Shown here: piece by piece, positions 6,444 to 54,370 of the stretch
Layout of the letters: every line of letters begins with the position of its first letter
Position numbering within the stretch: position 1 is the stretch's first letter
NCBI RefSeq assembly: GCF_024323335.1
Contig: NC_066584.1
Span: 421,329,819-421,393,818, forward strand
Origin: Lathyrus oleraceus
Lineage: Eukaryota > Streptophyta > Magnoliopsida > Fabales > Fabaceae
Reading direction: 5' to 3'
Length of the DNA: 64,000 nt
The notes under the pieces: generated by a model
Told to the model about the DNA's origin: nothing
What the model saw: the letters and a program-made list of their open reading frames with translations, nothing else
Databases searched by the model: none
Translations under genes and position numbers: made by a program

Positions 6444-6463
6444 AATAAGAACAGAATAGCTCG

Positions 6464-6620
6464 CTAAGTTGAAAACTCGAAAGGGCGGCTTAGGCAAAAA
6501 TGAGCGTCTCGGTGGATTGAAAACTCGAAAGGGCGATCCAGGAAAAAGTTAGAGACATAAAAAATGAATATGTATCCCGCTAGATTGAGTACCTCACCCC
6601 GGGGCAATCTAGGCAAAAAT
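6464..6620 (+). other. Ogre-A post-pol hairpin array (three modules)
   Basis: Three consecutive modules can fold: CTAAG 6464-6468 with CTTAG 6489-6493; TGGAT 6513-6517 with ATCCA 6536-6540; CTAGATTG 6580-6587 with CAATCTAG 6605-6612. Modules one and three are followed by GGCAAAAA, module two by GGAAAAA. The first two modules enclose an inner CTCGAAAGGG and the third an inner CCCCGGGG. Homologous arrays follow pol in Ogre-B, Ogre-C and Tat-D with different but still complementary stems. Confidence 0.75.
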
Positions 6621-18704: not shown

Positions 18705-18731
18705 TTCGCCTACAAATAAAAGAACAGCTCG

Positions 18732-18893
18732 CTAAATTGAAAACCCGAAAGGGCGGCTTAGGAAAAAATGAGTGTCTCGGTGGATTGAAAAACCGAAAGG
18801 ATGATCCAGGCAAAAGTTAGAGACATAAAACAGAAAGATTTATCCAGATAAATTGAGTACCCCGTCTTGGGGAAATTTATGCAAAATTAGGGA
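18732..18893 (+). other. Ogre-B post-pol hairpin array (three modules)
   Basis: CTAAA 18732-18736 with CTTAG 18757-18761 has one mismatch; TGGAT 18781-18785 pairs with ATCCA 18804-18808; ATAAATT 18848-18854 pairs with AATTTAT 18874-18880. Inner CCCGAAAGGG or CCGAAAGG occurs in the first two modules. The third stem differs from Ogre-A and Ogre-C but still pairs. Confidence 0.72.
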
Positions 18894-27768: not shown

Positions 27769-29188
27769 TGTAACACCTCAAAATTTGCCCTCCTCTCTTG
27801 GGACTAGCATTAACATATTTGCATATCACTTTAGGTCATTAGGCATTGCATATTGCATATCATGTGGTTACATTGTGCAAGCCATTCTCCCAAGTCTTGA
27901 TCAGAAGATGAGGAAGTCAAAGTGCAGGCCTAGGGTTTACTGACTGATCATTGGCCATCTGAGGATTGGGCTGTGAATCAGGGTTTTATGGTTCTCAGTG
28001 GATGTTGGTCTTCATCTTGATTGTAATGATACATCATCATCATCATGGTTGGTTATCATCAGAAGATGCAAGAGATTGAAGCTGATTCCTTGAGATTAGG
28101 GTTTTGACCACTGGTCAACCCTAATCAGTTGCATTGGGCCAGTCTGGGCTGGATCAGGAGATGGGGTTTGTGATGGTTATGGGGTTCATAATGTGATTAT
28201 ATTGTGCTTATTGAGGCTAGGGTGTCACCCTTGAGCCATTTCAGTTGAAGATTGGGGTTCAAATTGATCTATGCATTGCCAGATTCATCTATTAGATGAA
28301 AAGTCAACTGTGGTCAACTGTACATGATCTGATGGATTTGGAGGTGAAAATGAGTTAGACCTACTTCATGCATGTTGAAACAAGTGTTATATGACATCTC
28401 AAAGCTTAAGAATGAAGAAAATCAAGTCAGGACGAAAACTGCCAAAAATAGCAAGTGACTTGTAATTGAAGTTTCCAAAAATGGAAAGTTTTGGACCTCA
28501 AAGCCACGTGTACAAGGAAGCTTAAAATGAAAATTTGTTCAACATGAAAGTGGTAGATTTTGTTCTCACCTTTCCAAAAAGTCCAAGAACTTGAAAATCC
28601 AATGTATGGTTTGAAAATTAGGGCTCAGTGAATTTCAAAAATGACCCGTAATCAGGAGGCCATAATTTCCACATACTTTGTCCAAATTGCAAGTTCTTTA
28701 TATGCACAAACTCCATTTGACATGTACTTCAAGGGTGCATCATTGGATTTTCCCAAAAATGGCCAAGGCAAAAAGCCACTTTTCAACTGGACAGCTGAAT
28801 TGGACCAGGGGCAAAATTGTCCAACTCTCAAAATAATTGGAATTTTGAGATGAGACTTTTTTCTACACCTCATAAATGGAATTTGGAGTGTGTTTGAATA
28901 ATCATTTCATGCATGGGCCTTGTAAATTGGAATTTGGCTTGAAGAATGGAAGTTGTAAAAATGGACCAAATGCATACACATAGTGAATTTGAGATTTACA
29001 CCACCAATGGGAGTGGGACAAGTTGCAATGGTTCACATATGATATTTAGAGTTTGCATGAGCTGTCAACAGGTGTCAATGAGCTGTCATGTGGAAATTCC
29101 CATTTTGCCCTCTCTTGTAAACTAACCATTTTTCACTAACAATCCAATTTGCATAATTATGTGATTAAGAGCTTGGATTAGTGCAATG

Positions 29189-29196
29189 TATATAAA
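29189..29196 (+). promoter_or_regulatory. Tat-D 5' LTR TATA box
   Basis: TATATAAA, identical at 41953-41960 in the 3' LTR. It is followed by CCTAATCACTTG. Confidence 0.6.
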
Positions 29197-32109
29197 CCTA
29201 ATCACTTGTTAAACATAACAGATTTTCACATTCTCCAAAGTTGGATCTAGAACCTCTCATTCTCTCAAAATTCCATCAAGAACACAAATCTTCAAATCCA
29301 AGTTTCTTCATCAAATCTCAACCAATCTCCACGATTCCTTTTGCATCGATCTCCATTCATCAATATCTCAAGCTGTTTGTGGTATTTGGAGGGAGAAAAG
29401 CTTCAAATCGTGGCTGTCAAAGAAGCATCATCCATGGTGAATTGATGAGTTTGAGCAGTAGAAGCATTTTCCATCGAATCTAAGCTGCGCATCATACTTC
29501 CTCAAGGTCATGCTGTATCTGTTTCACCGAATTAAGAGCCAAGAACACCAACACGATTGCTGCCATTTCCAGGTTTGAAGGTTTTTCGAATCTCATGATT
29601 TGTTGCATGATCATACGCGTTTTGTAGTTCTTTTCACGTAGAGCACGGTGATAGCTTCAGTTTTGTGAATAGATGATTGTAGCATGCGAAATCTAGAGTT
29701 TAAGTTTTGATGATAAACCCTAACTTGCTCGATCCATAGAACATAGGAAGAATTGGTTAAAATGAGGCTCATATTTGGATTGTAGATGCTTAGACGGTTC
29801 GAATGACTATATGCATGTTCATTTCTGTGAAAGTTTTGTGTTCTTCGATTTTCTGGATTTTCTGGGAAATTCTGGGTAGAAGATGAAGCTGGAAGCGCTG
29901 TAGATCTTCAAAACTGTTTGAATTTTTAAACGAGGTGTTTCCCTCCCGCGCCAATAAATAATTACGAAAATGCCACTGTGTAATGTTAATTTATTTTCAT
30001 TAATTCTTAAAAATCCATAACACCTTAAATAATCCATAAAAAATTCATAAAAATTCAGAAAAATATGGAGATTTTTTCTATGACTTCCTTGTTGACTGTA
30101 GAATATTTTTGACCTATTGGTCAAAGTTGTGCATGGTAAAAATATCATTTGACCTAGGTTTGTTTCACATGTATGATTTTTTGATACCTTGTACCATTTG
30201 ATTCATGAAATGCACATAATGTTAAATAAATTCTTGCCAATTTTTGTGATGATTGTTGACTGGATGCTGATTATTTCCATGTAAATTTCATGAGTTTTTG
30301 ATACCTGGCCATGGAGTTATGAATTTTAGAACTTAGGTGTGACAATTTGTGTCACACCTCTTGATGTCAACTTGCTGGATTTAATTGAGTGGTCTATACT
30401 TGTTAGAATGAAATGAAATTTTGCATGATGGTTTATTGGTATGTTAAGATGCTGTATGAATTTTTGTGGAATTTTACAATGCATTTTCAAATTGATTGTG
30501 ATTTTTCATTTCTGTTGGTCAAATATGCAAGTCCATGTGGTACATGTTTGTAATTTTGATGAGAAATGCTCATATGGTACTGGATAATCATGAAATTTGG
30601 CATGCTTGTAATAGACACATAATGTGACATCCCTGTTTTGGTCTCATCCATTTCTTTATTGTTTTCATTGAGTTATGAATTTTTGAAGTGGAAGCATGTA
30701 TTGATGATGTGATTTGGAGCCTATAATTGTGTCTGTTTTTGTTGATTTTCATTGACATGGTTCCATTTGCCCAATTAAGCTCAAATTTGACATGGCATAC
30801 CTGGATTAGCCCCTGTTTAGGTGTATTTAATTTGAGAATTTTTGGATTTATTTTGATGTGGATTTGAATGCAATAGTTCTGTTTGTATGCTTGGTGCTTC
30901 ATTTGAACTAGTTTGCCTTATTTTGTGCATAACATAAGCATAAGGAATGATATAAACATGAGACCAATGATGTTTGCTCTTGTTTGACTTTAATTTGAGA
31001 TTGGTTGGTGAATACCTTGCTGTTTAGGAATTTTTTCTTGCTTTGGACCCTAGGCTTAGCCTAGTGGTCTTGTTGCTAATATTTGCTTGATTTTTCAGGA
31101 TCAAAAGCATAATGCACATGGAGAATGAATCAAGTTAAATTTAATTGATGTTGTTGATGTTTGTACACTAACATAACATTGTTTTGTAGGTGTTAAAGCT
31201 TAGGCTTAAGCTTTGAGCTTGCCTTGTGTTGTGTATTGAGTTGTATAGTTTGATTGATTGAACACTTGCTGTTTTGTTTTGTCTGTCTGAGTACTAACTG
31301 TGTTGGATTGTCTCCAGGTACTTTAGTTGCTCAGTTCCTTGTGAACTTTTGCTTTGCGTTGCTTAAGCAACTCGCATTGAGGTAAGTCCTCTTGACTTCA
31401 TGTAGTCTGGAGACCCGGCTGTTACCGGGCCGGGCAAATAAATGTCTGAAGTCCTCCTTAAGAGGCAATGATTGTGGTTGTTTATTTTTAAGCCCAAGCA
31501 GGTGAAAGTCCTTTAAATAAGGCAATTGGTGAAAGGTAGGGGTATGCAGCCTACCCCCCACTATTCAGTTGAGTCTTCTCCTTGCTCCCATTACATGGTT
31601 GAAGCATTGAGATCCTAACCCAAGATCCTGTGCAGTGCACATTGAGTCAGAGTCTCCGAGTATAGAAGGGTCCCCCCATTCTGGACCCATGCTCATTTGT
31701 CAGATGCTCTCCCTGGTTAGGGATATGAGCTGTGAGGTCTGATCCTCACTTCATCCTTTCATCTGCTTCACCTTAGCCTCGTAATGGCAAGGTTAAGAGC
31801 AAAACCAGCCTGTACAGACGACTCGCTTCGGCGGTCAAACCCCGATGATTGAGCCTCTTGTTTGGTTATAGTGGGTGTTTTGTGATTATTTGTCTAACGT
31901 GCTTGATTGAGATGCTTGTTCTCATTTGATATATGATTGTATGCTTGTGTGCTAGCTTCTTTCCTGGTTAGGTTAGTTTGCTTAGGCAAGTAGGATAGAA
32001 AACCGAACTTAGGGTTAACGATGCATGACAACATTAGGCTCGAGTCTCAGCTCCCTAGTGTCGTGTCTTTCCCCGGTTTCTGGTTAGCAATTCAGTCCCT
32101 TTCAGGGGA

Positions 32110-32172
32110 ACTACATCGCCCTGATCCTTGTTCCAGACAAGGTATGTAGGCAGGTGGTCGTGCGAGACCACT
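32110..32172 (+). other. LTR structured element, Tat-D copy 1
   Basis: CTACA 32111-32115 pairs with TGTAG 32145-32149 and encloses CCTTGT-TCCAG-ACAAGG (32126-32142). After GTAGGCA comes GTGGTC 32154-32159 with GACCAC 32166-32171. It is repeated unchanged at 44874-44936 in the 3' LTR. Confidence 0.78.
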
Positions 32173-32397
32173 CCGGGCAACCTTTTTCTTTTTTGTGTGT
32201 GTTTGTTTGTTATCTGATTGTGTGTTTGGCTCGGATGCCGACGTAAGCCCAGTGATTGGCAGTCGGGCTCCACGTTTGCCCTTTTGAGTGTGTTTTGGTT
32301 CGGATGCCGACATAATTCCATCCAGTGGTTGTCGGGCTCCATGTTTGCCACTCTTGTTTGTTCGCATGTTTTGTGTTGTTTGGCGTGCGTAAGCCGA

Positions 32398-32459
32398 ACT
32401 ACAGTGGCTCTGATTCTTGTTCCAGACAAGATATGTAGGCATAAGGTGCGATACCTTAT
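32398..32459 (+). other. LTR structured element, Tat-D copy 2
   Basis: CTACA 32399-32403 pairs with TGTAG 32434-32438 and encloses TCTTGT-TCCAG-ACAAGA (32415-32431). After GTAGGCA comes ATAAGGT 32441-32447 with ACCTTAT 32453-32459. The inner stem differs from copy 1 by a compensated pair (C-G to T-A). Confidence 0.8.
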
Positions 32460-32545
32460 CGAGCCCGTTTCTCCTAACCCCACCTGCGTTCCCCGTGTGT
32501 GTGTGTGATGTTTAGCAACCTTTTCTTTATTCTAGGACGTGGATC

Positions 32546-32561
32546 CCGTCGAGTACGACGG
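32546..32561 (+). other. AGTA-loop hairpin, Tat-D 5' LTR
   Basis: CCGTCG-AGTA-CGACGG, perfect 6-bp stem, with stem bases different from the CCTAGG version of Ogre-A and Ogre-C but the same loop. The GGTGCTAATACC box follows at 32570. The 3' LTR copy is at 45310-45325. Confidence 0.8.
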
Positions 32562-32752
32562 ACGTGAGGGGTGCTAATACCTTCCCCTTGCGTAACCGAC
32601 TCCCTTACCCTTTCTCTCTGGTCGCGAGACCATGTCTTTCCAGGTTTCTCTGAGCGTTTCCTTTCCCTATCTTGGGATAAATAACGTTTAGTGGCGGCTG
32701 TGTGTGTTTTTTATTTGAGTCTCGCCGGTTGATTTTCGCAGGATGCGACAGC

Positions 32753-32770
32753 TGGCGACTCCACTGGGGA
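32753..32770 (+). promoter_or_regulatory. Tat-D primer-binding site (tRNA-Arg type)
   Basis: TGGCGACTCCACTGGGGA, two bases after the LTR end. Confidence 0.88.
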
Positions 32771-34017
32771 CACGATGTAGACCTATGTTGGTCCATCGTC
32801 CCTAAGCGAGTCCTTCCTAGCGTTCTAGGATAGTTTAGGTTGCTTGATGTGTTATTTATTGCATTTATTATTCTAACCAGTGTGTATATATTTGCATTAA
32901 TGTCTGCATGCATCATACTATCATGTTGTTGCCGTTCTCTGTGCAGGTGTTTCCTCTGTTTGGGGTGGGTGTTCTGAGTGGGGCTAAAACCCAGGCCCGA
33001 GTGTACACCTAGGATTAGCGTGGTCTCACGTCGCTCATGTTCCGGTTGGGCATATTGTTGCTACGTGACATACCACAAGCCGGACGAGGTTCATCTGAGA
33101 AGTGCTCTTCCAGTGGGATTTTCCACTTTGGTTGGGTTATCTCTTTTGGGCTGTTGACTCTGGTGACCGATCATTTCCCGGATCTTTGGTTTAGACGATC
33201 TCAGGAGAGCTACAATGGCACACCCGAAAGGGCAAACCCATTGAGTATCTCTGCCCGATTGTCGAGACTATTATCCGCCTTAGGGTGACCTGAGTAGAAT
33301 TTACCTGTGAGGGGAGGGTGATTCTTACAGATGCATGTTCAGATGGTGACTCAGATGGTGACTTGTTGTTCAGTGGATCAGAGTCCTATTTATAAGTCGG
33401 ATTTATGGTCATTTATTGTCGTGACGCCGGAGTGCTGGCCGGTATTTATCAGTGGGGATCCGTTTATTTCAGGATTCCCCGGGCCGAGATATTTATCAGT
33501 GGGGATCCGTTTATTTCAGGATTCCCCGGGCCGATTCAGGTGGTTGTGGGTATCTGCTCAGAGATTATCCGGTGATGATGATGATGATGTATCTTTCTTC
33601 CGTTTATTTCGGAACCCTTGGGTTGGATTTGCGGTTACAGATTCCTCAGATGGTTGTGATTGGTTCAGAGATCAGGGCTGTGATTCAGAGCAACAGATGG
33701 TCAGATGACTTGGAGGATGGCACAGTGCATTGCATTCATACATCATTCTCATTTTGCATTCATCTGCATCAAACTCACGTCTAGCCATATGGGGAGTATT
33801 ATGGATTGAGAATCTGGTTGAGAGACATCCGGATGTCAAAATGTTATTGGTGAAATATTAGCTGTCTCGATGAAACCAGGATCAAAAGACAGAATCTTCC
33901 TCATATGGATAGACGTTGCATTCATGCATACTAACCTATTTGCTATTTTATAGGTGTCAGCCGGTGCGCATAGCTTGTTTGCTCAGATATCTTGCTGGGG
34001 GTAACAAATCTAAACTG
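32771..34017 (+). other. Tat-D 5' leader without ORF1
   Basis: About 1.25 kb. Unlike Ogre-C, no DUF7745-like ORF is present. It contains a 47-bp tandem duplication (33443-33489 and 33490-33536). No gene is supported. Confidence 0.7.
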
Positions 34018-35271
34018 ATGGATCCTCCCAACGCCGACATCCTCGAACTGAAAGAGATGGTGAGGGATTTGTTCAGGGTTGTGCAAGGGCTTGCCTTGGG
34101 GCAGAAAGCCATGGCCGAGAGATTAGAAAGGATTGAGGGCTGGATGATCAAAGAGAAAGTTCAGGGAAAGGCTCCGTCATCTGAAGTAACAAATCCCTCT
34201 GGCTCTGTGGTGAAGAAATCCCTTGACAGTGGTCAGCCCAAGAAGAAGGTTGAATCCGGTGGTGCGCAGACTAAAAGAGAATGCGGTAAGGATCGTTATC
34301 ACCCTTATGCTGCCACTGCAACCATTCCTGTTGGTGGTTCATCTGTACCACCGAGACATCCGTCACCTCGCCCGGGAGCACAGAGAGCTGGGAACCAGGT
34401 AAGAGGAAAGGGGGTTGATCGTCAATTTGATAGGCCACCCATACCGTATGCTCTTCTGTTGAGGAAGTTGAAAGATCTCGGAATGGTACAATTGAGGATA
34501 TTAGCTCCATTAGAACCTGATCAGAGGCCAACCAACTACGATGAGAATGCTAAGTGCGAATTCCATTCGGGGGCGTCTGGGCATAACATTGAGGGTTGTA
34601 GAGCTTTTAAGCATGCTGTCCAAGACCTGGTGGATTCCAAGGCCATTAATTTTGCACAATTTCCCAATGTTAATGCTAATCATATGCCCGCGCATGGTGA
34701 GGTGGAGATGAATGCAATTTCTGAGGATAGGAAGACGATTGGGTTGGTGAATGGGGATCGGTTAAAAATGCTGAGGCCTGTGGTCCCAAAACCTCGGAGG
34801 AAAGAGGGAACTTTCCCTAGTGTTGATACTTGTTGTATGGCCATCGCCACAGAGGGTGGTGTACCGATGGGGGATGTGATCCAGAAGGTGAAGGAAATGG
34901 ACGGTGGAAAATTTGAAACACCCAGTCTGGTAGCTGAAACCGTCAAGGTGGAAAATGCTATTGGTGTTGAGAAAGAGAAAAAGCTGTCCATTTCTTCTTA
35001 CAAGCAGGCATTGGAAGTGGTGAGAAATGGAGGGATCCCAGGCTGGGGACAGATCATAGGCATTGTGGTAAAGGCGGATATGTTTGGGATTGGTTATCGT
35101 CCAGGTCAAGACTCGTCTGAGCAGAACAGAGGACGTCGTCCGTCGTTCACCTTTGTAAGTGCCGGAATGCTAGATTCAGATCACGCCTATACAGTGGGTA
35201 AAGAAACTGACAGTGACTGGGAGATTGATCAATGGATAAAATCGTGTGTACCAGGAAGCTGGGAGGCCTAA
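34018..35271 (+). CDS. Tat-D Gag-derived protein, intact but internally deleted (417 aa)
   Basis: ATG at 34018 begins MDPPNADILELKEMVRD, a helical start typical of Gag in this group; the frame is open to TAA at 35269. Order: N-terminal coiled region with GQKAMAERLERIEGW (about residues 25-45), a Lys/Pro-rich linker, the Gag C-terminal block PIPYALLLRKLKDLG, then CEFHSGASGHNIEGC, a zinc-knuckle-like cluster matching CAFHQGAPRHDIENC of Ogre-C, then the protease-to-RT linker (SSYKQALEVVRNGG, PGWGQ). The central retrotransposon Gag domain and the retropepsin core with its catalytic aspartate are both absent, apparently removed by in-frame deletions. Upstream in-frame codons extend the frame to 33916 but show no homology, so I choose 34018. 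A structural role in particle formation is possible, and proteolysis is not. Confidence 0.75.
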   Translation: MDPPNADILELKEMVRDLFRVVQGLALGQKAMAERLERIEGWMIKEKVQGKAPSSEVTNPSGSVVKKSLDSGQPKKKVESGGAQTKRECGKDRYHPYAATATIPVGGSSVPPRHPSPRPGAQRAGNQVRGKGVDRQFDRPPIPYALLLRKLKDLGMVQLRILAPLEPDQRPTNYDENAKCEFHSGASGHNIEGCRAFKHAVQDLVDSKAINFAQFPNVNANHMPAHGEVEMNAISEDRKTIGLVNGDRLKMLRPVVPKPRRKEGTFPSVDTCCMAIATEGGVPMGDVIQKVKEMDGGKFETPSLVAETVKVENAIGVEKEKKLSISSYKQALEVVRNGGIPGWGQIIGIVVKADMFGIGYRPGQDSSEQNRGRRPSFTFVSAGMLDSDHAYTVGKETDSDWEIDQWIKSCVPGSWEA

Positions 35272-35586
35272 AAAGATCAACACTGTTACTCAGCCTGAAG
35301 AGTAATGATTTCTGTTTTGATTTTATCTGCATGAAAGCCATACGTGTTGCCCGACACGTAATGGTTCATTGTAAGGGCCACCTCATGTTTACATTTGCAA
35401 CATTTCTGCATCATTAATAAATGGATGTTTTTCAGTCAAAAAGCGGTGTTCCCTGTTTTTCATTTATTTTTGCAGTTTAAAAACAAATAAAAATGGCAAT
35501 GGTTATTTTCATTTTCTTTTTGATTTGTCTCGTCCCAAAGTCGAAAAATAATTCTCCGGATCTCGTTGATAACAATTTGGTTACCC
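35272..35586 (+). other. Tat-D gag-pro/pol spacer, possible intron relic
   Basis: This block sits where Ogre-A and Ogre-C have the pro/RT intron. A GTAATG donor-like sequence is near 35302, matching the Ogre donors. I cannot fix an acceptor: pol-like coding resumes near 35588. Confidence 0.5.
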
Positions 35587-36960
35587 CTCATATGACTTCG
35601 ACAAACCGATCTATCATGCCGAAGAAAAAGGCGAAGAAGATTGTGATCTGCTGGAATTAACCAGGATGTTGAAACAAGAGGAGAAGGTGATTCAGCCGCA
35701 CGAGGAGCGGGTTGAGGTTGTTATTCCGAGCACCGCCGAGGTCAGGAAGTGAAAATTGGAGCCGCTTCAGAGGCGAATCGAGAGCAGAATGGTAGCCCTG
35801 TTGAAAGAGCATGTGGATACCTTCGCCTGGTCGTGTCAAGATACGTCAGGGTCGGATACCGGTGTCGTTGTGCACAAGCTACCATGGAAAGGAGACTGTC
35901 CTCTAGAGAAGCAGAACGCCAGTGCCTGTATCAGAGAGCCATGGTGACTTTGTTTCATGATATGATTCATCATGAAGTTGAATGCTATGCTATGACATGA
36001 TAGCAAAGTCCCAAACAGGAGTGGGGCATCTGGCTGACCGGGGCAAGTCGGTTGACCGGTTTGAGACAATTCAAATTGAGGTTGAATTCAGATAAGTGCA
36101 CTATCAGAGTGCGGTCCGGTAAGATGTTGGGGTTTACTGTAAGAGAGGAATCGAGGTTGATCCTGCTGAAAAAAAAAATGCCTGAACCGAGGATAAAGAG
36201 AGAGGTTCGTGGTTTCATAGATAGATTGAACTACCTGTCATGGTTCACATCTCATCTAACAGCCACGTGTGAACCTATATTCGAGATGTTGAAAAAAAAA
36301 CGGTCAGGTGAAATAATGATTGCCAAGGGGAATTGAAAAAATAAAAGAATAAGTTGCAGGAACCTCCGATTCTGTTGCCTCTTGTGGAAGGAGCAATTGT
36401 TAATCTGTACTTGACAGCCTTCGAGGGGTCTGCGAGGTGTATTGGGTCAGCATGACGCGTCTTGTCGAAAAGAGCATGCAATTTACCTTAGCAAAAAGTT
36501 TACCGACTATGAAACAATACATTCACTGTTCGAGAAAACTTGATGTACTTTGGCATAGGCTGCTCGCCGACTGAGACAGTATATGCTGATTCATGCCACT
36601 TTGTGGATTTCCGAGATGGATCCGATCGAGTATGTGTTTGAGAAGCCAGCATCGACCGGACGGGTTGCGGGAGAGCAAAAGAATGTTGACTGATTGGTGA
36701 TGCTCTCAGAAAGCAATCAAGGGGTGTATTGTCTGATTACATCGCTCTGCAACCCATTGAGGATTATCAACCGATGAAGTTTGAGTTCCCTGATGAGGAC
36801 ATCTCGAGGTGCTCTAATCGAAAGATTGAGAGTAACCGATCCCGGAGGAGGGGTCTGACCCTGAATCCGAACGGGTTCTGATGTTTGATGGGGAAGTTAA
36901 GGTGAATGAGCTTTTGTTGCCCGGACAACGTTTGAATGCATCGACGGTGCGATTGTGCAG
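35587..36960 (+). pseudogene. Tat-D pol remnant: linker, RT, RNase H fragments
   Basis: The linker (LLELTRMLKQEEKVIQPHEE) is at about 35650-35710. The RT start (ALLKEHVDTFAWS) ends near 35910. The fingers and most of the palm are then deleted, and the sequence jumps to YQRAMVTLFHDMIHHE at about 35930-35980. The YVDD catalytic motif is destroyed there (CYAMT then stop). RT thumb and RNase H follow with many frameshifts and stops (LGFTVREES, REVRGFIDRLNYLS, LRQYM, DPIEYVFEKPA). The second RNase H begins near 36880 (MFDGEVKVN) and is cut off by another deletion. No enzyme activity is possible. Confidence 0.85.
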
Positions 36961-37472
36961 AAAAGGGTGGTAACCTACAGAGACTGGCATGAGATCTTGC
37001 CGTTTGTATCCTAGGTATCGACCTCGGTGCGCATATCTACTAGGGCAACTCCTTTCTCATTGGTATATGGGTTGGAAGCGGTATTACCTGTTGAGGTTCA
37101 GATTCCCTCTTTGAGAGTCCTGATGGACGTGAAATTGCAAGAGGCTGAATGGGTAAGGACCCGGTACGAAGAGTTGAGCCTGATAGAGGAAAAGAGGCTA
37201 GCAGCCATCTGTCATGGGCAGTTATACCAGCAACGGATGAAGCGTGCTTTTGATAGAAAGGTGCGACCTCGGGTGTATCACATGGGTGATATGGTGCTGA
37301 AAAGGATCCGTCCTCCTCAAAACGATCGTAGGGGCAAATGGACACCGAATTATGAAGGTCCATTCGTGGTCAAGAAGGTTTTTTGTAGTGGAGCCTTGTT
37401 GTTAACGACCATGGATGGTGAAGATTTTCCATCCCTTTAAATGCGGACGCAGTTAAAAAATACTTCGTGTAA
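36961..37472 (+). pseudogene. Tat-D integrase C-terminal fragment
   Basis: It begins at the block VVTYRDWHEILPF, so the zinc finger and the D,D,E core are missing. From 37027 it is open: TRATPFSLVYGLEAVLPVEV, AAICHGQLYQQRMK and GKWTPNYEGPFVVKK are the usual Ogre integrase C-terminal blocks. A one-base shift near 37430 moves the true end (NADAVKKYF) to TAA 37470-37472. A stop (TAG) at about 37012 precedes the open part. Confidence 0.88.
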
Positions 37473-37480
37473 TTGACCCG

Positions 37481-37680
37481 CTGGACGAAAAGAATAAAAT
37501 AGTCCAGGCAAAAATGGGCATCCCGGCGAACCAAAAACAGAAAGAAAGGTTCGGGCAAAAATTAGGGATAAAAAGGAAAATTGTACACCCGGCAAGTCGA
37601 AAACCTGAGAAGGGCGGCTTGGGCAAAAAGGGGTATCCCGGTGGACTGAAAACCCGAAAGGGCGGTCCAGGCAAAAGAGG
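37481..37680 (+). other. Tat-D post-pol hairpin array (four modules)
   Basis: CTGGAC 37481-37486 with GTCCAG 37502-37507; CGAACC 37527-37532 with GGTTCG 37548-37553; CAAGTC 37593-37598 with GGCTTG 37616-37621; TGGAC 37642-37646 with GTCCA 37665-37669. Each 3' arm is followed by GGCAAAA. Stem sequences differ in all four modules while pairing is kept. The fourth contains the inner CCCGAAAGGG. Confidence 0.8.
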
Positions 37681-37689
37681 GATTGAAAC

Positions 37690-40517
37690 GAACAACTGCG
37701 TCCCGCATGATCGTTCGCGCTTCAGTTAAAGCATCATGGATAATACCCGGTAGGGATCAGTCAGAAACATCTTGTTCAGAAGGCAGAAAGCATGGAGAGT
37801 CTGAGGACATATGGGGTGTAACCGAGTTGGAACTTGATGAGATCACGAGTTTCACATTGCCATTAGGATAGATTTTTCCTTTTGCGCAATTACCTCTTTT
37901 CAGGAATTGCTTCCTTTGTATTGCTCCTTTGAGCCACACTTTTCCAATCAATAAAATGCATATTCGGTCAAATAATTTTGTTTTTGTTTTTCATAACCGC
38001 TTTGATTGCAAAAACATCCAGATATTTTTGATAAAGAATCTTGCATTTTAAGACATACAGGTTCCTTCCAATGCATGTTTATAAGATTGAAAGCTGGAGA
38101 TCTTATTTGGAAGGTTGAGTGACCCAAGTGTTGAAATCTTGACACGCCTGGGGCACGGTTTTATCTAACGATCTGTTTTGCAGGAATTGTTAGATATTTT
38201 CACTCACTTGCAGGTTGTGATGTGGAAGCTGTTGATGAAACAAATCCCCAGAGAGTTCGCTCAGGGACGAATGAATATGAAAGAATGACGAAGACATTGA
38301 GACGTCCGACAACCCTTGAAATTAATCAAGAAGACTCTTCAAAGTCGAAAGATTTAAAAGTATGTAATTCCCCGCAGAGTCCGATCAGGAACGAGTGCAT
38401 GAAGAAAGAACAGGGAGACGACGAGAGACGTCCGACGACCTTTGGAATTAACCAAGAAGACTCTTCAAAGTCGAAAAGTTGAAATTTCTGTATAAATCCC
38501 AGGAGTACGTTTCTCGTCGAGCGCGGAGCGACTTGGAATACAAGATGATGGAGCAGAAAAGGTCCAGACGAGTCTGGGAATTCTCAAAAGTGGAAAGCCG
38601 ATACGAGATTGGGAGTTGGATACCGTGGTTCGACGAGTCGACGGGTGTTCTGTGCCAATTATTCTCGTTTCCCAGCTAGGTCCCCAAGCAGAGTCATAGG
38701 ACTAGCTTCCACAGCAGACTCAAGGTCTGTAAACTTCTCCAGCCGAGTCAAGATGGTTATACCTGGCAGGTTTACAATGGCGTTTCCTCAGCGGCCAGGC
38801 CAGAAGGTTGCTATTCCCCGAGTGGAGCGGGTTTTTTTTCAAAGAAATATATCTCCAGCAATTCCCCGAGTGGAGCGGGTTTCAATGAAATATATCTCCA
38901 GCAGTGTTCATCCTACCAGTGGATTGGACAAGTTCCCGTAGCGGACGGATGTTTGCATGCTCAGCTGAGTTGATCCTACCTATGGATTGCATGGGTTGTC
39001 CCCAGCGGAGTAGCATTCGTTTCCCTAGCATGGTCCGGATGGTTATCCCCAGCAGGTTTCAGATCGATGCTTTCCCAGTCGTCACGACTGGAGGTTGCTG
39101 TTTCCCCAGCGGAGTATCTGTGGGCATTTCCCCAGTGAAGTTGCCAGGTGTCTGTGAGGGTTCTCCAAGCAAGGTGGGGATGTATATCCCCAGCAAGTCA
39201 AAGATTGTTGTATCCCCACAGAGTGCATTGGTGGTTCTTATCCCCAGCAGTTTCTCGAGTGGATTGGGTGCAAAGGAGGTTTCCCCAGCAAGGGTTGCCT
39301 ATTTCCCAGCAACAGTGCTATTCCCCAGCAGGTTGGAGTTGGAGCAATGGCGAGTTCCTCAGCAGAGTGTCTCGTGCTTCCCAGAAGAGTCCCTTGAGGG
39401 GGATATTTCTTTTTATGCATTCATCATGTAAATAAGCATATCATATTGCATAGAAAAATAAATAATCGCGTAGCATTTCCATAATTATGGAGCATTACGC
39501 AGAAAAATCAATCATGCATCATTGCAAGCATAGGCTAATCTCAAGCCGTGGTTACCGTTTGAGATATGGTTCTGCCAGTGGGTGAAGATACAACTCGAGC
39601 CGTGATTACCGTTTGAGGAGTGGTTTCACTGGTTGGAAGCTCAACATCGTGACGAGATCAGCGCAATTCAAGCCGTGGATACCGCTTGATATTTGGTTTC
39701 ACCGGATGGTGAAGATGTTACTTGGATAAGTTCAACATCGTGACGCGATCAGCGCGATTCAAGCCGTGGATACCGCTTGATATTTGGTTTCACCGGATGG
39801 TGAAGATGTTACTTGGATAAGCTCAACATCGTGACGCGATCAGCGCAATTCAAGCCGTGGGTACAGCTTGATATTTGGTTTCACCGGATGGTGAAGATGT
39901 TACTTGGATAAGCTCAACATCGTGACGCGATCAGCGCGATTCAAGCCGTGGATACCGCTTGATATTTGGTTTCACCGGATGGTGAAGATGTTACTTGGAT
40001 AAGTTCAACATCATGACGCGTTCAGCATGACTCAAGCCGTGGTTACCGCTTGAAGGTTTGGTTTCACCAGATGGTGAAGATGTTACTCTGAGGAGTCTAG
40101 CATCATGACGTCAGATCAGCAGTGTTCCCCAGTAGTGCGATATTGGAGGAAATGTTTCCGTCGGACAGAGATGGAAATGATATCAGAAGACGTTACGCGA
40201 TCAGCACGATTCCGGGGTTCAAGAAAAGAAAAAGAAATCAGCAGAAATTTCGGGGTTCAAGAAAAGCATGAAAAAAGAAAGGAATAATAATCCCGAGCGG
40301 ATGAGTGGTGTTCAGGCCATGGTTATCCCTGCGTTACCATTTATTTTGGTATCCAGGTTGACGTTTGTCGAACTTGTTTCTTCGCCGATGCTGACAGGCG
40401 TTGTTAATTATTATCCCATCAGAGTGCAAATTGTTCGTCTGTTCTTGGTATTCAATCACTCTTCACCCTGATCATCCGAAAGCCGAGGCTATTTCGTATC
40501 GACAGGTTCACAGTGGA
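37690..40517 (+). repeat. Tat-D 3' UTR
   Basis: Non-coding. It includes a duplicated GACGTCCGACRACC...AAGAAGACTCTTCAAAGTCG-type segment (about 38300-38480), many CCCCAGCAGAGT-like blocks (38660-39390) and the 91-bp tandem array (39596-40100). Short open frames here show no homology and follow the repeats. Confidence 0.7.
39596..40100 (+). repeat. 91-bp tandem repeat array in the Tat-D 3' UTR
   Basis: The landmark CAAGCCGTGG recurs at 39669, 39760, 39851, 39942 and 40033, spaced exactly 91 bp. Each unit also contains TTTCACCGGATGGTGAAG (itself an inverted repeat, TTCACC-GGATGG-TGAA) and AACATCGTGACGCG. Two shorter diverged copies precede at 39542 and 39596. Confidence 0.92.
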
Positions 40518-40532
40518 TTGAATAGGGGCAGC
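40518..40532 (+). promoter_or_regulatory. Tat-D polypurine tract
   Basis: TTGAATAGGGGCAGC immediately before the 3' LTR. Confidence 0.85.
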
Positions 40533-43500
40533 TGTAACACCTCAAAATTTGCCCTCCTCTCTTGGGACTAGCATTAACATATTTGCATATCACTTTAGGT
40601 CATTAGGCATTGCATATTGCATATCATGTGGTTACATTGTGCAAGCCATTCTCCCAAGTCTTGATCAGAAGATGAGGAAGTCAAAGTGCAGGCCTAGGGT
40701 TTACTGACTGATCATTGGCCATCTGAGGATTGGGCTGTGAATCAGGGTTTTATGGTTCTCAGTGGATGTTGGTCTTCATCTTGATTGTAATGATACATCA
40801 TCATCATCATGGTTGGTTATCATCAGAAGATGCAAGAGATTGAAGCTGATTCCTTGAGATTAGGGTTTTGACCACTGGTCAACCCTAATCAGTTGCATTG
40901 GGCCAGTCTGGGCTGGATCAGGAGATGGGGTTTGTGATGGTTATGGGGTTCATAATGTGATTATATTGTTCTTATTGAGGCTAGGGTGTCACCCTTGAGC
41001 CATTTCAGTTGAAGATTGGGGTTCAAATTGATCTATGCATTGCCAGATTCATCTATCAGATGAAAAGTCAACTGTGGTCAACTGTACATGATCTGATGGA
41101 TTTGGAGGTGAAAATGAGTTAGACCTACTTCATGCATGTTGGAACAAGTGTTATATGACATCTCAAAGCTTAAGAATGAAGAAAATCAAGTCAGGACGAA
41201 AACTGCCAAAAATAGCAAGTGACTTGTAATTGAAGTTTCCAAAAATGGAAAGTTTTGGACCTCAAAGCCACGTGTCCAAGGAAGCTTCAAATGAAAATTT
41301 GTTCAACATGAAAGTGGTAGATTTTGTTCTCACCTTTCCAAAAAGTCCAAGAACTTGAAAATCCAATGTATGGTTTGAAAATTAGGGCTCAGTGAATTTC
41401 AAAAATGACCCGTAATCAGGAGGCCATAATTTCCACATACTTTGTCCAAATTGCAAGTTCTTTATATGCACAAACTCCATTTGACATGTACTTCAAGGGT
41501 GCATCATTGGATTTTCCCAAAAATGGCCAAGGCAAAAAGCCACTTTTCAACTGGACAGCTGAATTGGACCAGGGGCAAAATTGTCCAACTCTCAAAATAA
41601 TTGGAATTTTGAGATGGGACTTTTTTCTACACCTCATAAATGGAATTTGGAGTGTGTTTGAATAATCATTTCATGCATGGGCCTTGTAAATTGGAATTTG
41701 GCTTGAAGAATGGAAGTTGTAAAAATGGACCAAATGCATACACATAGTGAATTTGAGATTTACACCACCAATGGGAGTGGGACAAGTTGCAATGGTTCAC
41801 ATATGATATTTAGAGTTTGCATGAGCTGTCAACAGGTGTCAATGAGCTGTCATGTGGAAATTCCCATTTTGCCCTCTCTTGTAAACTAACCATTTTTCAC
41901 TAACAATCCAATTTGCATAATTATGTGATTAAGAGCTTGGATTAGTGCAATGTATATAAACCTAATCACTTGTTAAACATAACAGATTTTCACATTCTCC
42001 AAAGTTGGATCTAGAACCTCTCATTCTCTCAAAATTCCATCAAGAACACAAATCTTCAAATCCAAGTTTCTTCATCAAATCTCAACCAATCTCCACGATT
42101 CCTTTTGCATCGATCTCCATTCATCAATATCTCAAGCTGTTTGTGGTATTTGGAGGGAGAAAAGCTTCAAATCGTGGCTGTCAAAGAAGCATCATCCATG
42201 GTGAATTGATGAGTTTGAGCAGTAGAAGCATTTTCCATCGAATCTAAGCTGCGCATCATACTTCCTCAAGGTCATGCTGTATCTGTTTCACCGAATTAAG
42301 AGCCAAGAACACCAACACGATTGCTGCCATTTCCAGGTTTGAAGGTTTTTCGAATCTCATGATTTGTTGCATGATCATACGCGTTTTGTAGTTCTTTTCA
42401 CGTAGAGCACGGTGATAGCTTCAGTTTTGTGAATAGATGATTGTAGCATGCGAAATCTAGAGTTTAAGTTTTGATGATAAACCCTAACTTGCTCGATCCA
42501 TAGAACATAGGAAGAATTGGTTAAAATGAGGCTCATATTTGGATTGTAGATGCTTAGACGGTTCGAATGACTATATGCATGTTCATTTCTGTGAAAGTTT
42601 TGTGTTCTTCGATTTTCTGGATTTTCTGGGAAATTCTGGGTAGAAGATGAAGCTGGAAGCGCTGTAGATCTTCAAAACTGTTTGAATTTTTAAACGAGGT
42701 GTTTCCCTCCCGTGCCAATAAATAATTACGAAAATGCCACTGTGTAATGTTAATTTATTTTCATTAATTCTTAAAAATCCATAACACCTTAAATAATCCA
42801 TAAAAAATTCATAAAAATTCAGAAAAATATGGAGATTTTTTCTATGACTTCCTTGTTGACTGTAGAATATTTTTGACCTATTGGTCAAAGTTGTGCATGG
42901 TAAAAATATCATTTGACCTAGGTTTGTTTCACATGTATGATTTTTTGATACCTTGTACCATTTGATTCATGAAATGCACATAATGTTAAATAAATTCTTG
43001 CCAATTTTTGTGATGATTGTTGACTGGATGCTGATTATTTCCATGTAAATTTCATGAGTTTTTGATACCTGGCCATGGAGTTATGAATTTTAGAACTTAG
43101 GTGTGACAATTTGTGTCACACCTCTTGATGTCAACTTGCTGGATTTAATTGAGTGGTCTATACTTGTTAGAATGAAATGAAATTTTGCATGATGGTTTAT
43201 TGGTATGTTAAGATGCTGTATGAATTTTTGTGGAATTTTACAATGCATTTTCAAATTGATTGTGATTTTTCATTTCTGTTGGTCAAATATGCAAGTCCAT
43301 GTGGTACATGTTTGTAATTTTGATGAGAAATGCTCATATGGTACTGGATAATCATGAAATTTGGCATGCTTGTAATAGACACATAATGTGACATCCCTGT
43401 TTTGGTCTCATCCATTTCTTTATTGTTTTCATTGAGTTATGAATTTTTGAAGTGGAAGCATGTATTGATGATGTGATTTGGAGCCTATAATTGTGTCTGT

Positions 43501-45514
43501 TTTTGTTGATTTTCATTGACATGGTTCCATTTGCCCAATTAAGCTCAAATTTGACATGGCATACCTGGATTAGCCCCTGTTTAGGTGTATTTAATTTGAG
43601 AATTTTTGGATTTATTTTGATGTGGATTTGAATGCAATAGTTCTGTTTGTATGCTTGGTGCTTCATTTGAACTAGTTTGCCTTATTTTGTGCATAACATA
43701 AGCATAAGGAATGATATAAACATGAGACCAATGATGTTTGCTCTTGTTTGACTTTAATTTGAGATTGGTTGGTGAATACCTTGCTGTTTAGGAATTTTTT
43801 CTTGCTTTGGACCCTAGGCTTAGCCTAGTGGTCTTGTTGCTAATATTTGCTTGATTTTTCAGGATCAAAAGCATAATGCACATGGAGAATGAATCAAGTT
43901 AAATTTAATTGATGTTGTTGATGTTTGTACACTAACATAACATTGTTTTGTAGGTGTTAAAGCTTAGGCTTAAGCTTTGAGCTTGCCTTGTGTTGTGTAT
44001 TGAGTTGTATAGTTTGATTGATTGAACACTTGCTGTTTTGTTTTGTCTGTCTGAGTACTAACTGTGTTGGATTGTCTCCAGGTACTTTAGTTGCTCAGTT
44101 CCTTGTGAACTTTTGCTTTGCGTTGCTTAAGCAACTCGCATTGAGGTAAGTCCTCTTGACTTCATGTAGTCTGGAGACCCGGCTGTTACCGGGCCGGGCA
44201 AATAAATGTCTGAAGTCCTCCTTAAGAGGCAATGATTGTGGTTGTTTATTTTTAAGCCCAAGCAGGTGAAAGTCCTTTAAATAAGGCAATTGGTGAAAGG
44301 TAGGGGTATGCAGCCTACCCCCCACTATTCAGTTGAGTCTTCTCCTTGCTCCCATTACATGGTTGAAGCATTGAGATCCTAACCCAAGATCCTGTGCAGT
44401 GCACATTGAGTCAGAGTCTCCGAGTATAGAAGGGTCCCCCCATTCTGGACCCATGCTCATTTGTCAGATGCTCTCCCTGGTTAGGGATATGAGCTGTGAG
44501 GTCTGATCCTCACTTCATCCTTTCATCTGCTTCACCTTAGCCTCGTAATGGCAAGGTTAAGAGCAAAACCAGCCTGTACAGACGACTCGCTTCGGCGGTC
44601 AAACCCCGATGATTGAGCCTCTTGTTTGGTTATAGTGGGTGTTTTGTGATTATTTGTCTAACGTGCTTGATTGAGATGCTTGTTCTCATTTGATATATGA
44701 TTGTATGCTTGTGTGCTAGCTTCTTTCCTGGTTAGGTTAGTTTGCTTAGGCAAGTAGGATAGAAAACCGAACTTAGGGTTAACGATGCATGACAACATTA
44801 GGCTCGAGTCTCAGCTCCCTAGTGTCGTGTCTTTCCCCGGTTTCTGGTTAGCAATTCAGTCCCTTTCAGGGGAACTACATCGCCCTGATCCTTGTTCCAG
44901 ACAAGGTATGTAGGCAGGTGGTCGTGCGAGACCACTCCGGGCAACCTTTTTCTTTTTTGTGTGTGTTTGTTTGTTATCTGATTGTGTGTTTGGCTCGGAT
45001 GCCGACGTAAGCCCAGTGATTGGCAGTCGGGCTCCACGTTTGCCCTTTTGAGTGTGTTTTGGTTCGGATGCCGACATAATTCCATCCAGTGGTTGTCGGG
45101 CTCCATGTTTGCCACTCTTGTTTGTTCGCGTGTTTTGTGTTGTTTGGCGTGCGTAAGCCGAACTACAGTGGCTCTGATTCTTGTTCCAGACAAGATATGT
45201 AGGCATAAGGTGCGATACCTTATCGAGCCCGTTTCTCCTAACCCCACCTGCGTTCCCCGTGTGTGTGTGTGATGTTTAGCAACCTTTTCTTTATTCTAGG
45301 ACGTGGATCCCGTCGAGTACGACGGACGTGAGGGGTGCTAATACCTTCCCCTTGCGTAACCGACTCCCTTACCCTTTCTCTCTGGTCGCGAGACCATGTC
45401 TTTCCAGGTTTCTCTGAGCGTTTCCTTTCCCTATCTTGGGATAAATAACGTTTAGTGGCGGCTGTGTGTGTTTTTTATTTGAGTCTCGCCGGTTGATTTT
45501 CGCAGGATGCGACA
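40533..45514 (+). repeat. Tat-D 3' LTR (4982 bp)
   Basis: It matches 27769-32750 base for base except for about 8 substitutions seen by eye (for example around 40970, 41057, 41141, 41275, 41288, 41618, 42714 and 45130). The structured elements recur at 44874-44936 and 45162-45223 and the AGTA hairpin at 45310-45325. Confidence 0.95.
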
Positions 45515-45515
45515 G

Positions 45516-45925
45516 CTTCTCCTTGCGAAATACATATGTTCATGGTTATGATTGATCCATTAACTCTCCCTAACCAAGATGTAGAGGAGTTGGAAGACGC
45601 GCTCGCCAAGATGAAGCAAGAGAAGGATATGTGGGAAGAGCGTTTCCGTGCTTTGAGCAAGAAGCATGAAGAGTTGCAGTTGGAGTCTAAGGACAAAGAT
45701 GCACTGATTGAGCTACTTGAAGACCGAGTGACTAAGAGACAGAGAGAGCCAGAGGTTTCATCTTCTAGCATGTCTCAGCCTTCCGTTGCTTGGAAGAAGA
45801 TTGTTGATCAGCTTGTCCTCGAGAAGACTCAGATGAAGGCTTCTTTTGAGATAGAGATCCGTCGCATTCGAAGGAAGTACACGCCTTCAGCCAGATCTTC
45901 TGACATTGTTGATAGGGATCCTTAG
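45516..45925 (+). pseudogene. Ogre-C ORF1, C-terminal part (coiled coil)
   Basis: It starts with the right copy of the CTTCT duplication; from 45521 the frame continues the ORF1 interrupted at 27768. The sequence is rich in Glu, Lys and Leu (DVEELEDALAKMKQEKDMWE, then LESKDKDALIELLEDRV), strongly suggesting a coiled coil, and ends in a basic tail and TAG 45923-45925. ORF1 without Tat-D would have about 500 codons. The start MFMVMIDPL is not a new gene start but an internal part of ORF1. Confidence 0.85.
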
Positions 45926-53212: not shown

Positions 53213-53233
53213 ATAAGGAAGAAAAAAAACTCG

Positions 53234-53390
53234 CTAAGTTGAAAACCCGAAAGGGCGGCTTAGGCAAAAATGAGCGTCTTGGTGGATTGAAAACCCGAAA
53301 GGGCGATCCAGGAAAAAATTAGAGATATAAAACAGAAAGAATTTCCCGATAAGTTGAGTACCCCACCTTGGGGAAACTTATGCAAAAATT
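53234..53390 (+). other. Ogre-C post-pol hairpin array (three modules)
   Basis: CTAAG 53234-53238 with CTTAG 53259-53263; TGGAT 53283-53287 with ATCCA 53306-53310; ATAAGTT 53349-53355 with AACTTAT 53375-53381. Modules one and two enclose CCCGAAAGGG (possible GAAA tetraloop). GCAAAAA or GGAAAAA follows each stem. Confidence 0.78.
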
Positions 53391-53394
53391 AGGG

Positions 53395-54370
53395 ATTATG
53401 GCAAGTAACTGCATTCTACTGATGTTCAGTGGTTTTGAAGAATTCTTTGAGCACAAGGGTTGACATCAGTTCATCTCTAGCAGCGGTCAAGAGCACAGTG
53501 GATATCAAGAGTTGGTAGAAGGATTAAGGATCATTTGTATTCAGTGTAACCCTTTTCCATGTAAATTGCCATTTTCAACTTTGTAAAATCTATGGAGTCT
53601 TGTCATTTATAGACTATCATTCTATTAAATAAAGTTGAGCTTTCAGCCAATAGTTTTAAATTTTATTATGATCATTTTTTAAATTAAATTTTTTAAGTCA
53701 AACTCATGTTTTTTTTAAAAACATATAAAATCAAGAATTTTCCAAAGCAAGTAAAAGGAATATCAACAACATTTCAATGAATAGCAAGTCCTTAAGTGTG
53801 AAACATCAAAGGTTCCCCAAGCAGTTAATCCTTCAGGTATCCCTAGACGTTTGTGTTGATTCAGTTCCTCGGCAGAGTGATTGATCCCCAGTGGAATTTC
53901 TTTCCTTGTCCCCAGCTGATTTGGTTGATTCAGATACCCTGCGGCATGTTGTGTTCCTCGACAGAGTTTCTGCCTTCCCCAGCGAAGTTCGTATTTCCTC
54001 AGTAAGGTTGATCTTTAGAGATAGTTGATCTTTCCCCAGTGGATCACATTGGTTTCCCCACCAATCGCTATTCAACTTGCTCCTAGTCAGAGTTTCCTCC
54101 TGGTTTCTGAGCAGCTGTTGTTATGATTTTTCTCTGTAGGATTGTCTCCCATTTTTATGGTGTTGACCTAAAATTCCCCATAGATTGGATGTTCTGTCCT
54201 CAGCAGATCTCCTCCTTCCCCAGTTAGGTTTGAACCTTTGGGATGTTGATCTCTCTGTTCTCCCGCAGATTGTCTCCATATTTTATGGATTTACCGAGGA
54301 TTGTGTCGGTGGTTCAAATTCTTTGCGACACCTTTGTATCCTTTGTGATCATTTTGTCAGCATAATCATC

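What the first reader, a model, noticed from the sequence alone, without database searches (positions are those of the whole stretch)
53234..53381. Hairpin array directly after pol with compensatory stem changes
Seen: after the pol stop codon Ogre-A, -B and -C each have three modules that can fold. In module three the stem is CTAGATTG/CAATCTAG (6580-6612), ATAAATT/AATTTAT (18848-18880) and ATAAGTT/AACTTAT (53349-53381): bases change on both sides and pairing is kept. Modules one and two enclose a CCCGAAAGGG-like core, a possible GAAA tetraloop. A G(G)CAAAA-like tail follows each stem. Inference: a selected RNA structure in the 3' UTR of the genomic RNA, perhaps for packaging, translation, export or RNA stability.
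Basis: partly seen in the sequence, partly recalled or inferred. Interest (0 to 1): 0.88.

Follow-up and report, generated by a model that had tools for sequence, protein, structure and literature searches.

The report
Paired folded-RNA modules after pol
Right after the last gene of a very abundant pea retrotransposon lies a row of three or four small RNA structures whose paired bases change together, which marks a preserved RNA signal, probably one that lets proteins recognise the element's RNA.

Summary
Each hairpin is the inside of a repeated RNA module: outer stem P1, one or two G, inner stem P2 with a dispensable apical loop (often GNRA-capped), an A-rich strand, then P1'. Three modules follow pol in A, B and C; four follow pol in an unreported element, D. 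P2 covaries in sequence-only alignments of the 13 window modules and of 128 distinct modules from this genome; P1 covaries too. G-U outnumbers A-C 64 to 3 in P2, so the sense RNA folds. Two motif words occur 54,984 and 101,055 times genome-wide, against 1 and 6 for reversed controls. Of 58 loci, 57 have the pol end just upstream; 20 of 20 loci picked by integrase have modules. A family lacking the integrase core keeps them in 19 of 20 sampled copies, stems varying least. Rfam has no match. Best reading: a cis-acting protein-binding signal on the element's RNA; packaging, export or stability is undecided. Folding energy alone is unremarkable.

The parts
53229..53275 (+). Element C, module 1: P1 53229-53232/53272-53275 (3 of 4 pairs), P2 53234-53240/53257-53263, GAAA-capped inner hairpin in the loop, A-rich strand 53264-53271
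53276..53326 (+). Element C, module 2 (abuts module 1): P1 53276-53280/53322-53326, P2 53283-53289/53304-53310, A-rich strand 53311-53321
53343..53396 (+). Element C, module 3: P1 53343-53347/53392-53396 (4 of 5 pairs), P2 53349-53355/53375-53381, A-rich strand 53382-53391
6459..6505 (+). Element A, module 1
6506..6556 (+). Element A, module 2 (abuts module 1)
6574..6627 (+). Element A, module 3: P1 AUCCC/GGGAU, P2 6580-6587/6605-6612
18727..18773 (+). Element B, module 1 (P2 has one mismatch)
18774..18824 (+). Element B, module 2 (abuts module 1)
18841..18894 (+). Element B, module 3: P2 18848-18854/18874-18880; P1 weakest of the set (3 of 5 pairs)
37476..37519 (+). Element D, module 1: P2 CUGGAC/GUCCAG, A-rich apical loop without inner hairpin
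37520..37569 (+). Element D, module 2 (abuts module 1): P1 AUCCC/GGGAU, P2 CGAACC/GGUUCG, apical loop without inner hairpin
37587..37634 (+). Element D, module 3
37635..37683 (+). Element D, module 4 (abuts module 3): P1 AUCCC/GGGAU, P2 UGGACUG/CGGUCCA, GAAA-capped inner hairpin
27769..45517 (+). Element D: LTRs 27769-32753 and 40533-45517 (99.84% identical), integrase core missing at the 36900/36951 junction; carries the four-module array

Best explanation
The array is a cis-acting RNA element of the sense (genomic and messenger) transcript of Ogre/Tat-type retrotransposons. It is a multivalent protein-docking platform made of three or four copies of one small module. Shown by computation: P1 and P2 stems are kept by covariation on the sense strand; the internal loop between them (one or two G, or AG, against a GGCAAAAAUUA-like strand) recurs in all 13 window modules, while the apical loop is free to change in length and sequence; modules stand mostly in abutting pairs right after the pol stop; the array is kept in a family that lost the integrase core. 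Inferred: each internal loop is a recognition site for a nucleic-acid-binding protein. I judge the element's own Gag, marking full-length RNA for packaging, the likeliest partner. A host factor that exports or stabilises the intron-containing RNA comes next. Because P1 of module 1 starts within a few bases of the stop codon in the loci with four detected modules, a terminating ribosome would melt module 1, so the intact array could report RNA that is not being translated (speculative). The confidence given is for 'cis-acting protein-binding element on the element's RNA'; for Gag packaging in particular I put about 0.35.
For: Covariation: on the sequence-only MAFFT alignment of the 13 window modules, 7 of 8 P2 pairs have changes on both sides; with P2 and the inner hairpin marked, the covariation score is 0.555 against 0.342 for shuffles and 0.058-0.223 for slid partners. 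RNAalifold on the same alignment predicts P2 by itself. On 128 distinct modules the six P2 pairs rank 2, 3, 4, 5, 10 and 11 of the column pairs at least four apart. P1: own strands beat permuted ones (708 of 800 against mean 647.7, sd 5.8, maximum 670 of 2,000 permutations; also 0 of 20,000 permutations on my hand decomposition of the 13). Sense strand: 64 G-U against 3 A-C among 768 P2 cells. Of 71 three-pair inner hairpins with a four-base loop, 64 have a GNRA loop. Position: 57 of 58 distinct loci directly after the pol end; 20 of 20 loci chosen by integrase have modules. Cis action: all 40 scored places, D included, match D's integrase-deletion junction over its full length; 19 of 20 sampled keep the array; substitutions per site in stems are 0.006 (P1) and 0.011 (P2) against 0.046 in the flanking integrase remnant and 0.064 in the 3' flank. 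A-B-C identity: array 85-89%, adjacent pol 81-85%, next 110 nt 44-67%. Review PMC4974528 states that Ty3 RNA localisation and packaging depended on UTRs or POL sequences.
Against: No protein binding, packaging or export was or could be tested. Folding energy is ordinary. Copies in one genome share ancestry, and no phylogeny-aware null was available; the measure 'further pair types' did not exceed shuffles, and in the window set none of the 3 inner-hairpin pairs has a two-sided change. The decomposition was made by hand with the structure in mind. In the integrase-less family the A-rich strand (0.040) and linker (0.032) are not clearly more conserved than flanks; the core-against-rest permutation gives only p = 0.014. 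For Ty1 the same review places the packaging sequences near the 5' end (PMC4974528, sections 5 and 9 read).
Confidence: 0.6

Rival explanations
1. Export or stability element for intron-containing RNA (the same class as the best explanation, with a host partner instead of Gag). Ogre RNA keeps or splices an intron between gag-pro and RT; the array, placed between the last gene and the 3' LTR like a retroviral constitutive transport element, would recruit a host factor that exports or protects unspliced RNA.
For: Position between pol and 3' LTR; repeated internal-loop modules; Neumann et al. [quoted passage not shown]
Against: No export factor tested; the array lies in spliced and unspliced RNA alike; plants are not known to have an NXF1/TAP orthologue (recalled), so the partner would differ.
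Confidence: 0.25
2. Termination-proximal shield: a structured, A-rich stretch right behind the pol stop codon protects the long-3'-UTR transcript from nonsense-mediated decay or tunes termination.
For: The first detected module starts 4-9 nt after the last pol codon (stop codon included) in 37 of 59 rows, among them all 34 rows with four detected modules; D has about 3 kb between pol stop and 3' LTR.
Against: Position may only reflect that this is where non-coding sequence begins; D-type copies without the integrase core keep the array; an AATAAA 217-322 nt after the last detected module in 47 of 60 rows could give a short 3' UTR anyway (no chance control made).
Confidence: 0.15
3. The hairpins act at the DNA or small-RNA level (recombination, DNA-binding site, siRNA precursor) rather than as folded sense RNA.
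For: The sequences are also inverted repeats in DNA, and tens of thousands of copies exist.
Against: 64 G-U against 3 A-C in P2 favours sense RNA; sense folds better relative to shuffles than antisense in all four arrays; stems of 4-8 bp are short for dicing (established knowledge).
Confidence: 0.03
4. No function: the array is an old tandem duplication inherited by all copies, and the apparent covariation reflects a few ancestral module types.
For: Copies are related; module types recur; shared ancestry inflates shuffle tests (stated limit); free energy is ordinary.
Against: Types differ by matched changes on both strands, and slid partners lose the signal; loops shrink to 5-6 nt while P2 stays; stems vary about 4 to 10 times less than flanks in the integrase-less family; the array outlasts the next 110 nt between A, B and C.
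Confidence: 0.03

Closest known systems
Retroviral constitutive transport elements (Mason-Pfizer monkey virus type; recalled, not looked up)
   Same: Structured RNA with repeated internal loops between the last gene and the 3' LTR of an LTR element.
   Different: Here three or four separate modules, mostly in abutting pairs, with an A-rich loop strand; no known export factor; no Rfam match.
Packaging and dimerisation signals of LTR elements (Ty1/Ty3 review PMC4974528, passages and sections 5 and 9 read; BARE PMC3735527, passages read)
   Same: cis-acting RNA that lets elements defective for proteins be mobilised in trans, as the D family appears to have been.
   Different: Known Ty1 packaging sequences lie near the 5' end; the array lies after pol and is a repeated module.
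Rous sarcoma virus stability element (recalled, not looked up)
   Same: Directly downstream of a stop codon, in front of a long 3' UTR.
   Different: That element is described as pyrimidine-rich and PTB-bound (recalled); the array is A-rich and modular.
ENE triple-helix elements of plant transposable elements (recalled; the one search for them was rejected for a character and not resent)
   Same: Conserved RNA structures near the 3' end of plant transposon RNA.
   Different: ENEs need a U-rich internal loop (recalled); here the loop strand is A-rich in all 13 window modules.
Hypervariable 3' UTR tandem repeats of LTR elements (Macas 2009, seen only as a reference-list entry) and the Retand pol-3'LTR region (PMC11963269, abstract and passages read)
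   Same: Same region of the element, between pol and the 3' LTR.
   Different: Those are satellites and antisense ORFs; the words hairpin, stem and secondary structure do not occur in the main text of the Retand paper.

Membership tests
Any of 4,227 Rfam 15 families | Covariance-model score at or above the curated gathering score | tested here: not met
   Whole window 0 matches; relaxed scans of the D and C arrays gave only sub-threshold hits, best 17.7 bits against a cut-off of 45
New module family described here | P2 stem kept by paired changes on the sense strand | tested here: met
New module family described here | Outer stem P1 closing the A-rich internal loop | tested here: met
   one P1 pair has 12 unpaired of 47 cells with letters, which I ascribe to the two registers of the A-rich strand
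New module family described here | Directly downstream of the pol end | tested here: met
   57 of 58 distinct loci (59 of 60 rows, two rows being duplicates), two of them by weak partial matches (L017 E 0.07, L078 E 0.10); exception L090
Retroviral constitutive transport element | Between last gene and 3' LTR | tested here: met
   D: array 37476-37683, 3' LTR from 40533
Retroviral constitutive transport element | Binds an export receptor and exports unspliced RNA | not testable with these tools
   needs experiment
LTR-element packaging signal | Bound by Gag and needed for encapsidation | not testable with these tools
   only indirect: kept in integrase-deleted copies
Rous sarcoma virus stability element | Directly downstream of a stop codon | tested here: met
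   first detected module 4-9 nt after the last pol codon in 37 of 59 rows
Rous sarcoma virus stability element | Pyrimidine-rich PTB-binding tracts (recalled) | tested here: not met
   by reading only: the four arrays are A-rich with short pyrimidine runs
ENE triple-helix element | U-rich internal loop within a stem (recalled) | tested here: not met
   internal-loop strand is A-rich in all 13 window modules
Ogre lineage (host element) | Ty3/gypsy pol with integrase at the end, long LTRs, Fabeae relatives | tested here: met
Ogre lineage (host element) | Intron between gag-pro and RT; additional RNase H; primer-binding site type | not tested
   not examined

The most novel reading that the evidence does not exclude
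An RNA module not found in Rfam or in my paper searches, whose words number about 10^5 in one crop genome, works as a repeated recognition site by which Ogre proteins pick their genomic RNA. Abutting module pairs act as two-site docking units. The stop-proximal module is melted by terminating ribosomes, so the array reports translation status and switches RNA between translation and packaging. Elements lacking the integrase core survive by keeping this tag.
Probability: 0.15. Interest if true: 0.92.

Novelty: new variant of a known kind. Interest (0 to 1): 0.76.

Why it matters
Ogre makes up a large part of Fabeae genomes (recalled; PMC4659654 seen only as a listing), yet no RNA signal for handling its genomic RNA turned up in my searches of an open-access library. 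A 2025 survey of 130 plant genomes reported 16 structured RNA candidates with generally modest covariation, and its main text does not contain the word beginnings transpos or retro (PMC12218528, abstract and word search). A covarying module in tens of thousands of copies gives plant RNA biology a rich natural data set and makes an open question testable: how plant LTR elements select, export and protect their RNA, and how defective elements parasitise intact ones.

Tried and rejected
Tried without result: exact core and P1-tail patterns in viral contigs, integrase-based searches of viral contigs and genome contigs: no relatives. Rfam, gathering and relaxed: nothing above cut-off. Search of printed text for the core: 6 papers, by title unrelated (listing only). 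Single-module and array folding energies: not significant. The model R1 recovers 10 of the 13 window modules and nothing else in the window at E up to 10; A1, B1 and C1 (short outer tail) are missed, so module counts in related loci are lower bounds.

Considered and rejected. Stop-codon readthrough: in C and in D the pol frame closes again after nine codons, inside module 1 (A, B and other loci not checked). A peptide-coding repeat: one frame of D is open for 90 aa across the array and such translations occur in databases, but loop lengths change by single bases between copies and stems covary with G-U pairs. An antisense ORF as in Retand: one search lists no minus-strand ORF of 200 aa or more in the window. 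CRISPR-repeat-like Rfam hits: chance, far below cut-off.

Protein-database route: translated arrays found 33 proteins and 40, most of them unnamed or 'hypothetical' metagenome ORFs, plus one from Lathyrus oleraceus (P0137) and one from Medicago truncatula (P0157). This hints at breadth beyond pea but gives no DNA, so it was not used for covariation.

Full report
What was checked. In A3, for example, AUCCC and GGGAU enclose G, the stem CUAGAUUG/CAAUCUAG with its loop, and GCAAAAAUUA. The unit is P1, one or two linking bases (G, GG; AG in B3), P2, loop, P2', an A-rich strand of 8-11 nt, P1'. All 13 modules of the window fit this plan. Weakest are P1 of B3 (3 of 5 pairs), one missing P1 pair each in C1, C3 and D1, and one P2 mismatch in B1.

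A fourth element. A pattern search led to 37648 and so to element D, whose pol stop codon at 37470-37472 is followed by four modules. D is young: 4,985-bp LTRs at 27769-32753 and 40533-45517 are 99.84% identical. It is also defective: its pol jumps from 36900 to 36951 where C runs from 51531 to 52687, which removes the integrase core (an rve domain was found in the C segment 52358-52969). No Pfam match reached its cut-off in seven D segments scanned (7 of the 24 segments of 60 aa or more listed).

Structure, window set. MAFFT aligned the 13 modules by sequence alone. With P2 and the inner hairpin marked, 89.9% of cells pair, 7 of 11 pairs show changes on both sides (all 7 in P2, which has 8 pairs; none of the 3 inner-hairpin pairs), and the covariation score is 0.555 against 0.342 for shuffles and at most 0.223 for slid partners. 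RNAalifold, told nothing, predicts P2. One measure goes the other way: the number of further pair types is not above shuffles (13 against 15.5; 16 against 18.5 on the 63 modules).

Structure, genome set. The window lies in a 3.8-Gb genome. A core pattern has 101,055 matches with up to one mismatch, 6 for the reversed control. A P1-tail pattern has 15,518 against 0 and a 16-nt tail word 54,984 against 1. R1, built from the window modules, found 63 modules in 24 loci (6 of 30 left out because they overlap others), 95 in 25 (5 of 30 left out as places already seen), and 33 in 11 (11 of 30 given). Two of the last 11, L062 and L065, repeat L031 and L032.

Sequence-only alignment of 128 distinct modules (from the 171 and the window) and an average-product-corrected G-test over column pairs at least four apart put the six P2 pairs at ranks 2, 3, 4, 5, 10 and 11, an inner-hairpin pair (22-27) at rank 9 and a P1 pair (2-52) at rank 15. 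Rank 1 (columns 46-51) comes, I judge, from two registers of the A-rich strand and is not a helix; the other pairs among the first 25 are not helix pairs and probably follow module types. So the ranking is strong but not clean. P2 cells hold 670 Watson-Crick, 64 G-U, 3 A-C and 31 other combinations. P1, tested with free choice of register against permuted partners, scores 708 of 800 against a mean of 647.7 (sd 5.8) and a maximum of 670 (160 of 166 distinct modules could be decomposed, which required a fully paired P2). Apical loops run from 5 to 28 nt; a family with loops of 5-6 nt keeps P2 (L062, L069, L072). Of 71 three-pair inner hairpins with a four-base loop, 64 are GNRA (GAAA 50, GCAA 7, GAGA 5, GGAA 2).

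Layout. In one search, neighbouring detected modules lie 0-2 nt apart within a pair and 16-24 nt apart between pairs, apart from loci with gaps of 63-71 nt, where a module in between was not detected. The pol end lies upstream on the same strand in 59 of 60 rows (57 of 58 distinct loci; L017 and L078 by weak partial matches); the exception, L090, looks truncated. In 37 of the 59 rows the first detected module starts 4-9 nt after the last pol codon, the stop codon included; all 34 rows with four detected modules are among them. These loci come from the first 11 megabases of one contig. The reverse test used 20 integrase matches on seven contigs, picked from the list before their letters were seen: 20 of 20 have modules, 78 in all. 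Those 20 resemble D closely, so this test does not cover distant families.

Selection and cis action. Between A, B and C the array (85-89% identity) is a little more conserved than the adjacent pol (81-85%) and far more than the next 110 nt (44-67%). The D-type deletion junction was matched over its full 131 nt by all 40 scored places, D included, of 2,456 candidates, so D belongs to an amplified family without the integrase core. Of 20 sampled copies 19 have the array, 74 modules in all. L116 has none; L122 and L123 show three, their stretch starting inside the array. In 17 copies plus D (3 of 20 dropped: L116, L122, L123) pairwise substitutions per site are 0.006 in P1, 0.011 in P2, 0.032 in the linker, 0.040 in the A-rich strand, 0.050 in the loops, 0.156 in the spacer, 0.046 in the integrase remnant and 0.064 in the 3' flank. 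The pooled core against flanks gives p = 0.014 by column permutation; the stems carry this, not the A-rich strand. Such elements must borrow integrase, so what they keep is likely needed in cis. Shared recent ancestry is a caveat, and the integrase remnant of D is itself still open for 141 aa.

How it may work. Conserved stems around an asymmetric internal loop, repeated in pairs on the sense strand, look like a multivalent protein site. I favour recognition of genomic RNA by Gag, then export or stability of intron-containing RNA, then a termination-proximal shield. No computation here separates them. The partial splicing of Ogre (PMC6317226, passages read) makes the export reading attractive; the integrase-less family fits packaging and export equally well and fits a role in making Pol less well.

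Known or new. Rfam has nothing. Ten paper searches were answered; those on Ogre, LTR RNA structure and the core sequence listed no paper that, by title or abstract start, describes this module. The library is open-access only and lacks most subscription papers. Of the papers I saw: PMC11963269, abstract and passages; PMC3305785, one reference-list passage of a word search; PMC3735527, passages; PMC4974528, passages and two sections; PMC6317226, passages; PMC12218528, abstract and a word search without hits. None was read in full. A translated array from Medicago truncatula (P0157) suggests spread beyond pea, at peptide level only.

Noticed in passing
53545-53650 (AATAAA at 53628; also near 6848 and 19127; D near 37950): A conserved block with AATAAA lies after the array and well before the 3' LTR; A, B and C are 79-85% identical there, and 47 of 60 related rows have AATAAA, first at 217-322 nt after the last detected module (no chance control). 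It may give a pol mRNA that ends before the 3' LTR.
   Followed up: partly
27769-45517: Element D is a recent insertion (LTRs 99.84% identical) that lacks the integrase core, and its deletion junction is shared by at least 39 other places in the genome: an amplified non-autonomous family.
   Followed up: yes
39546-40120: Tandem 91-bp repeats in the 3' UTR of D, like the satellite-seeding repeats reported for this region of LTR elements.
   Followed up: no
20294-20904 and 54870-55552: Diverged tandem-like repeats in the 3' regions of B and C.
   Followed up: no
L018, L020, L022: Identical or nearly identical post-pol regions spaced about 7.73 kb apart on one contig suggest a recent tandem duplication of an element segment.
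   Followed up: no
33916-35271: A 451-aa open frame in D without a Pfam match shares a 100-aa region (39% identity) with the ORF at 47468-48277 of C.
   Followed up: no
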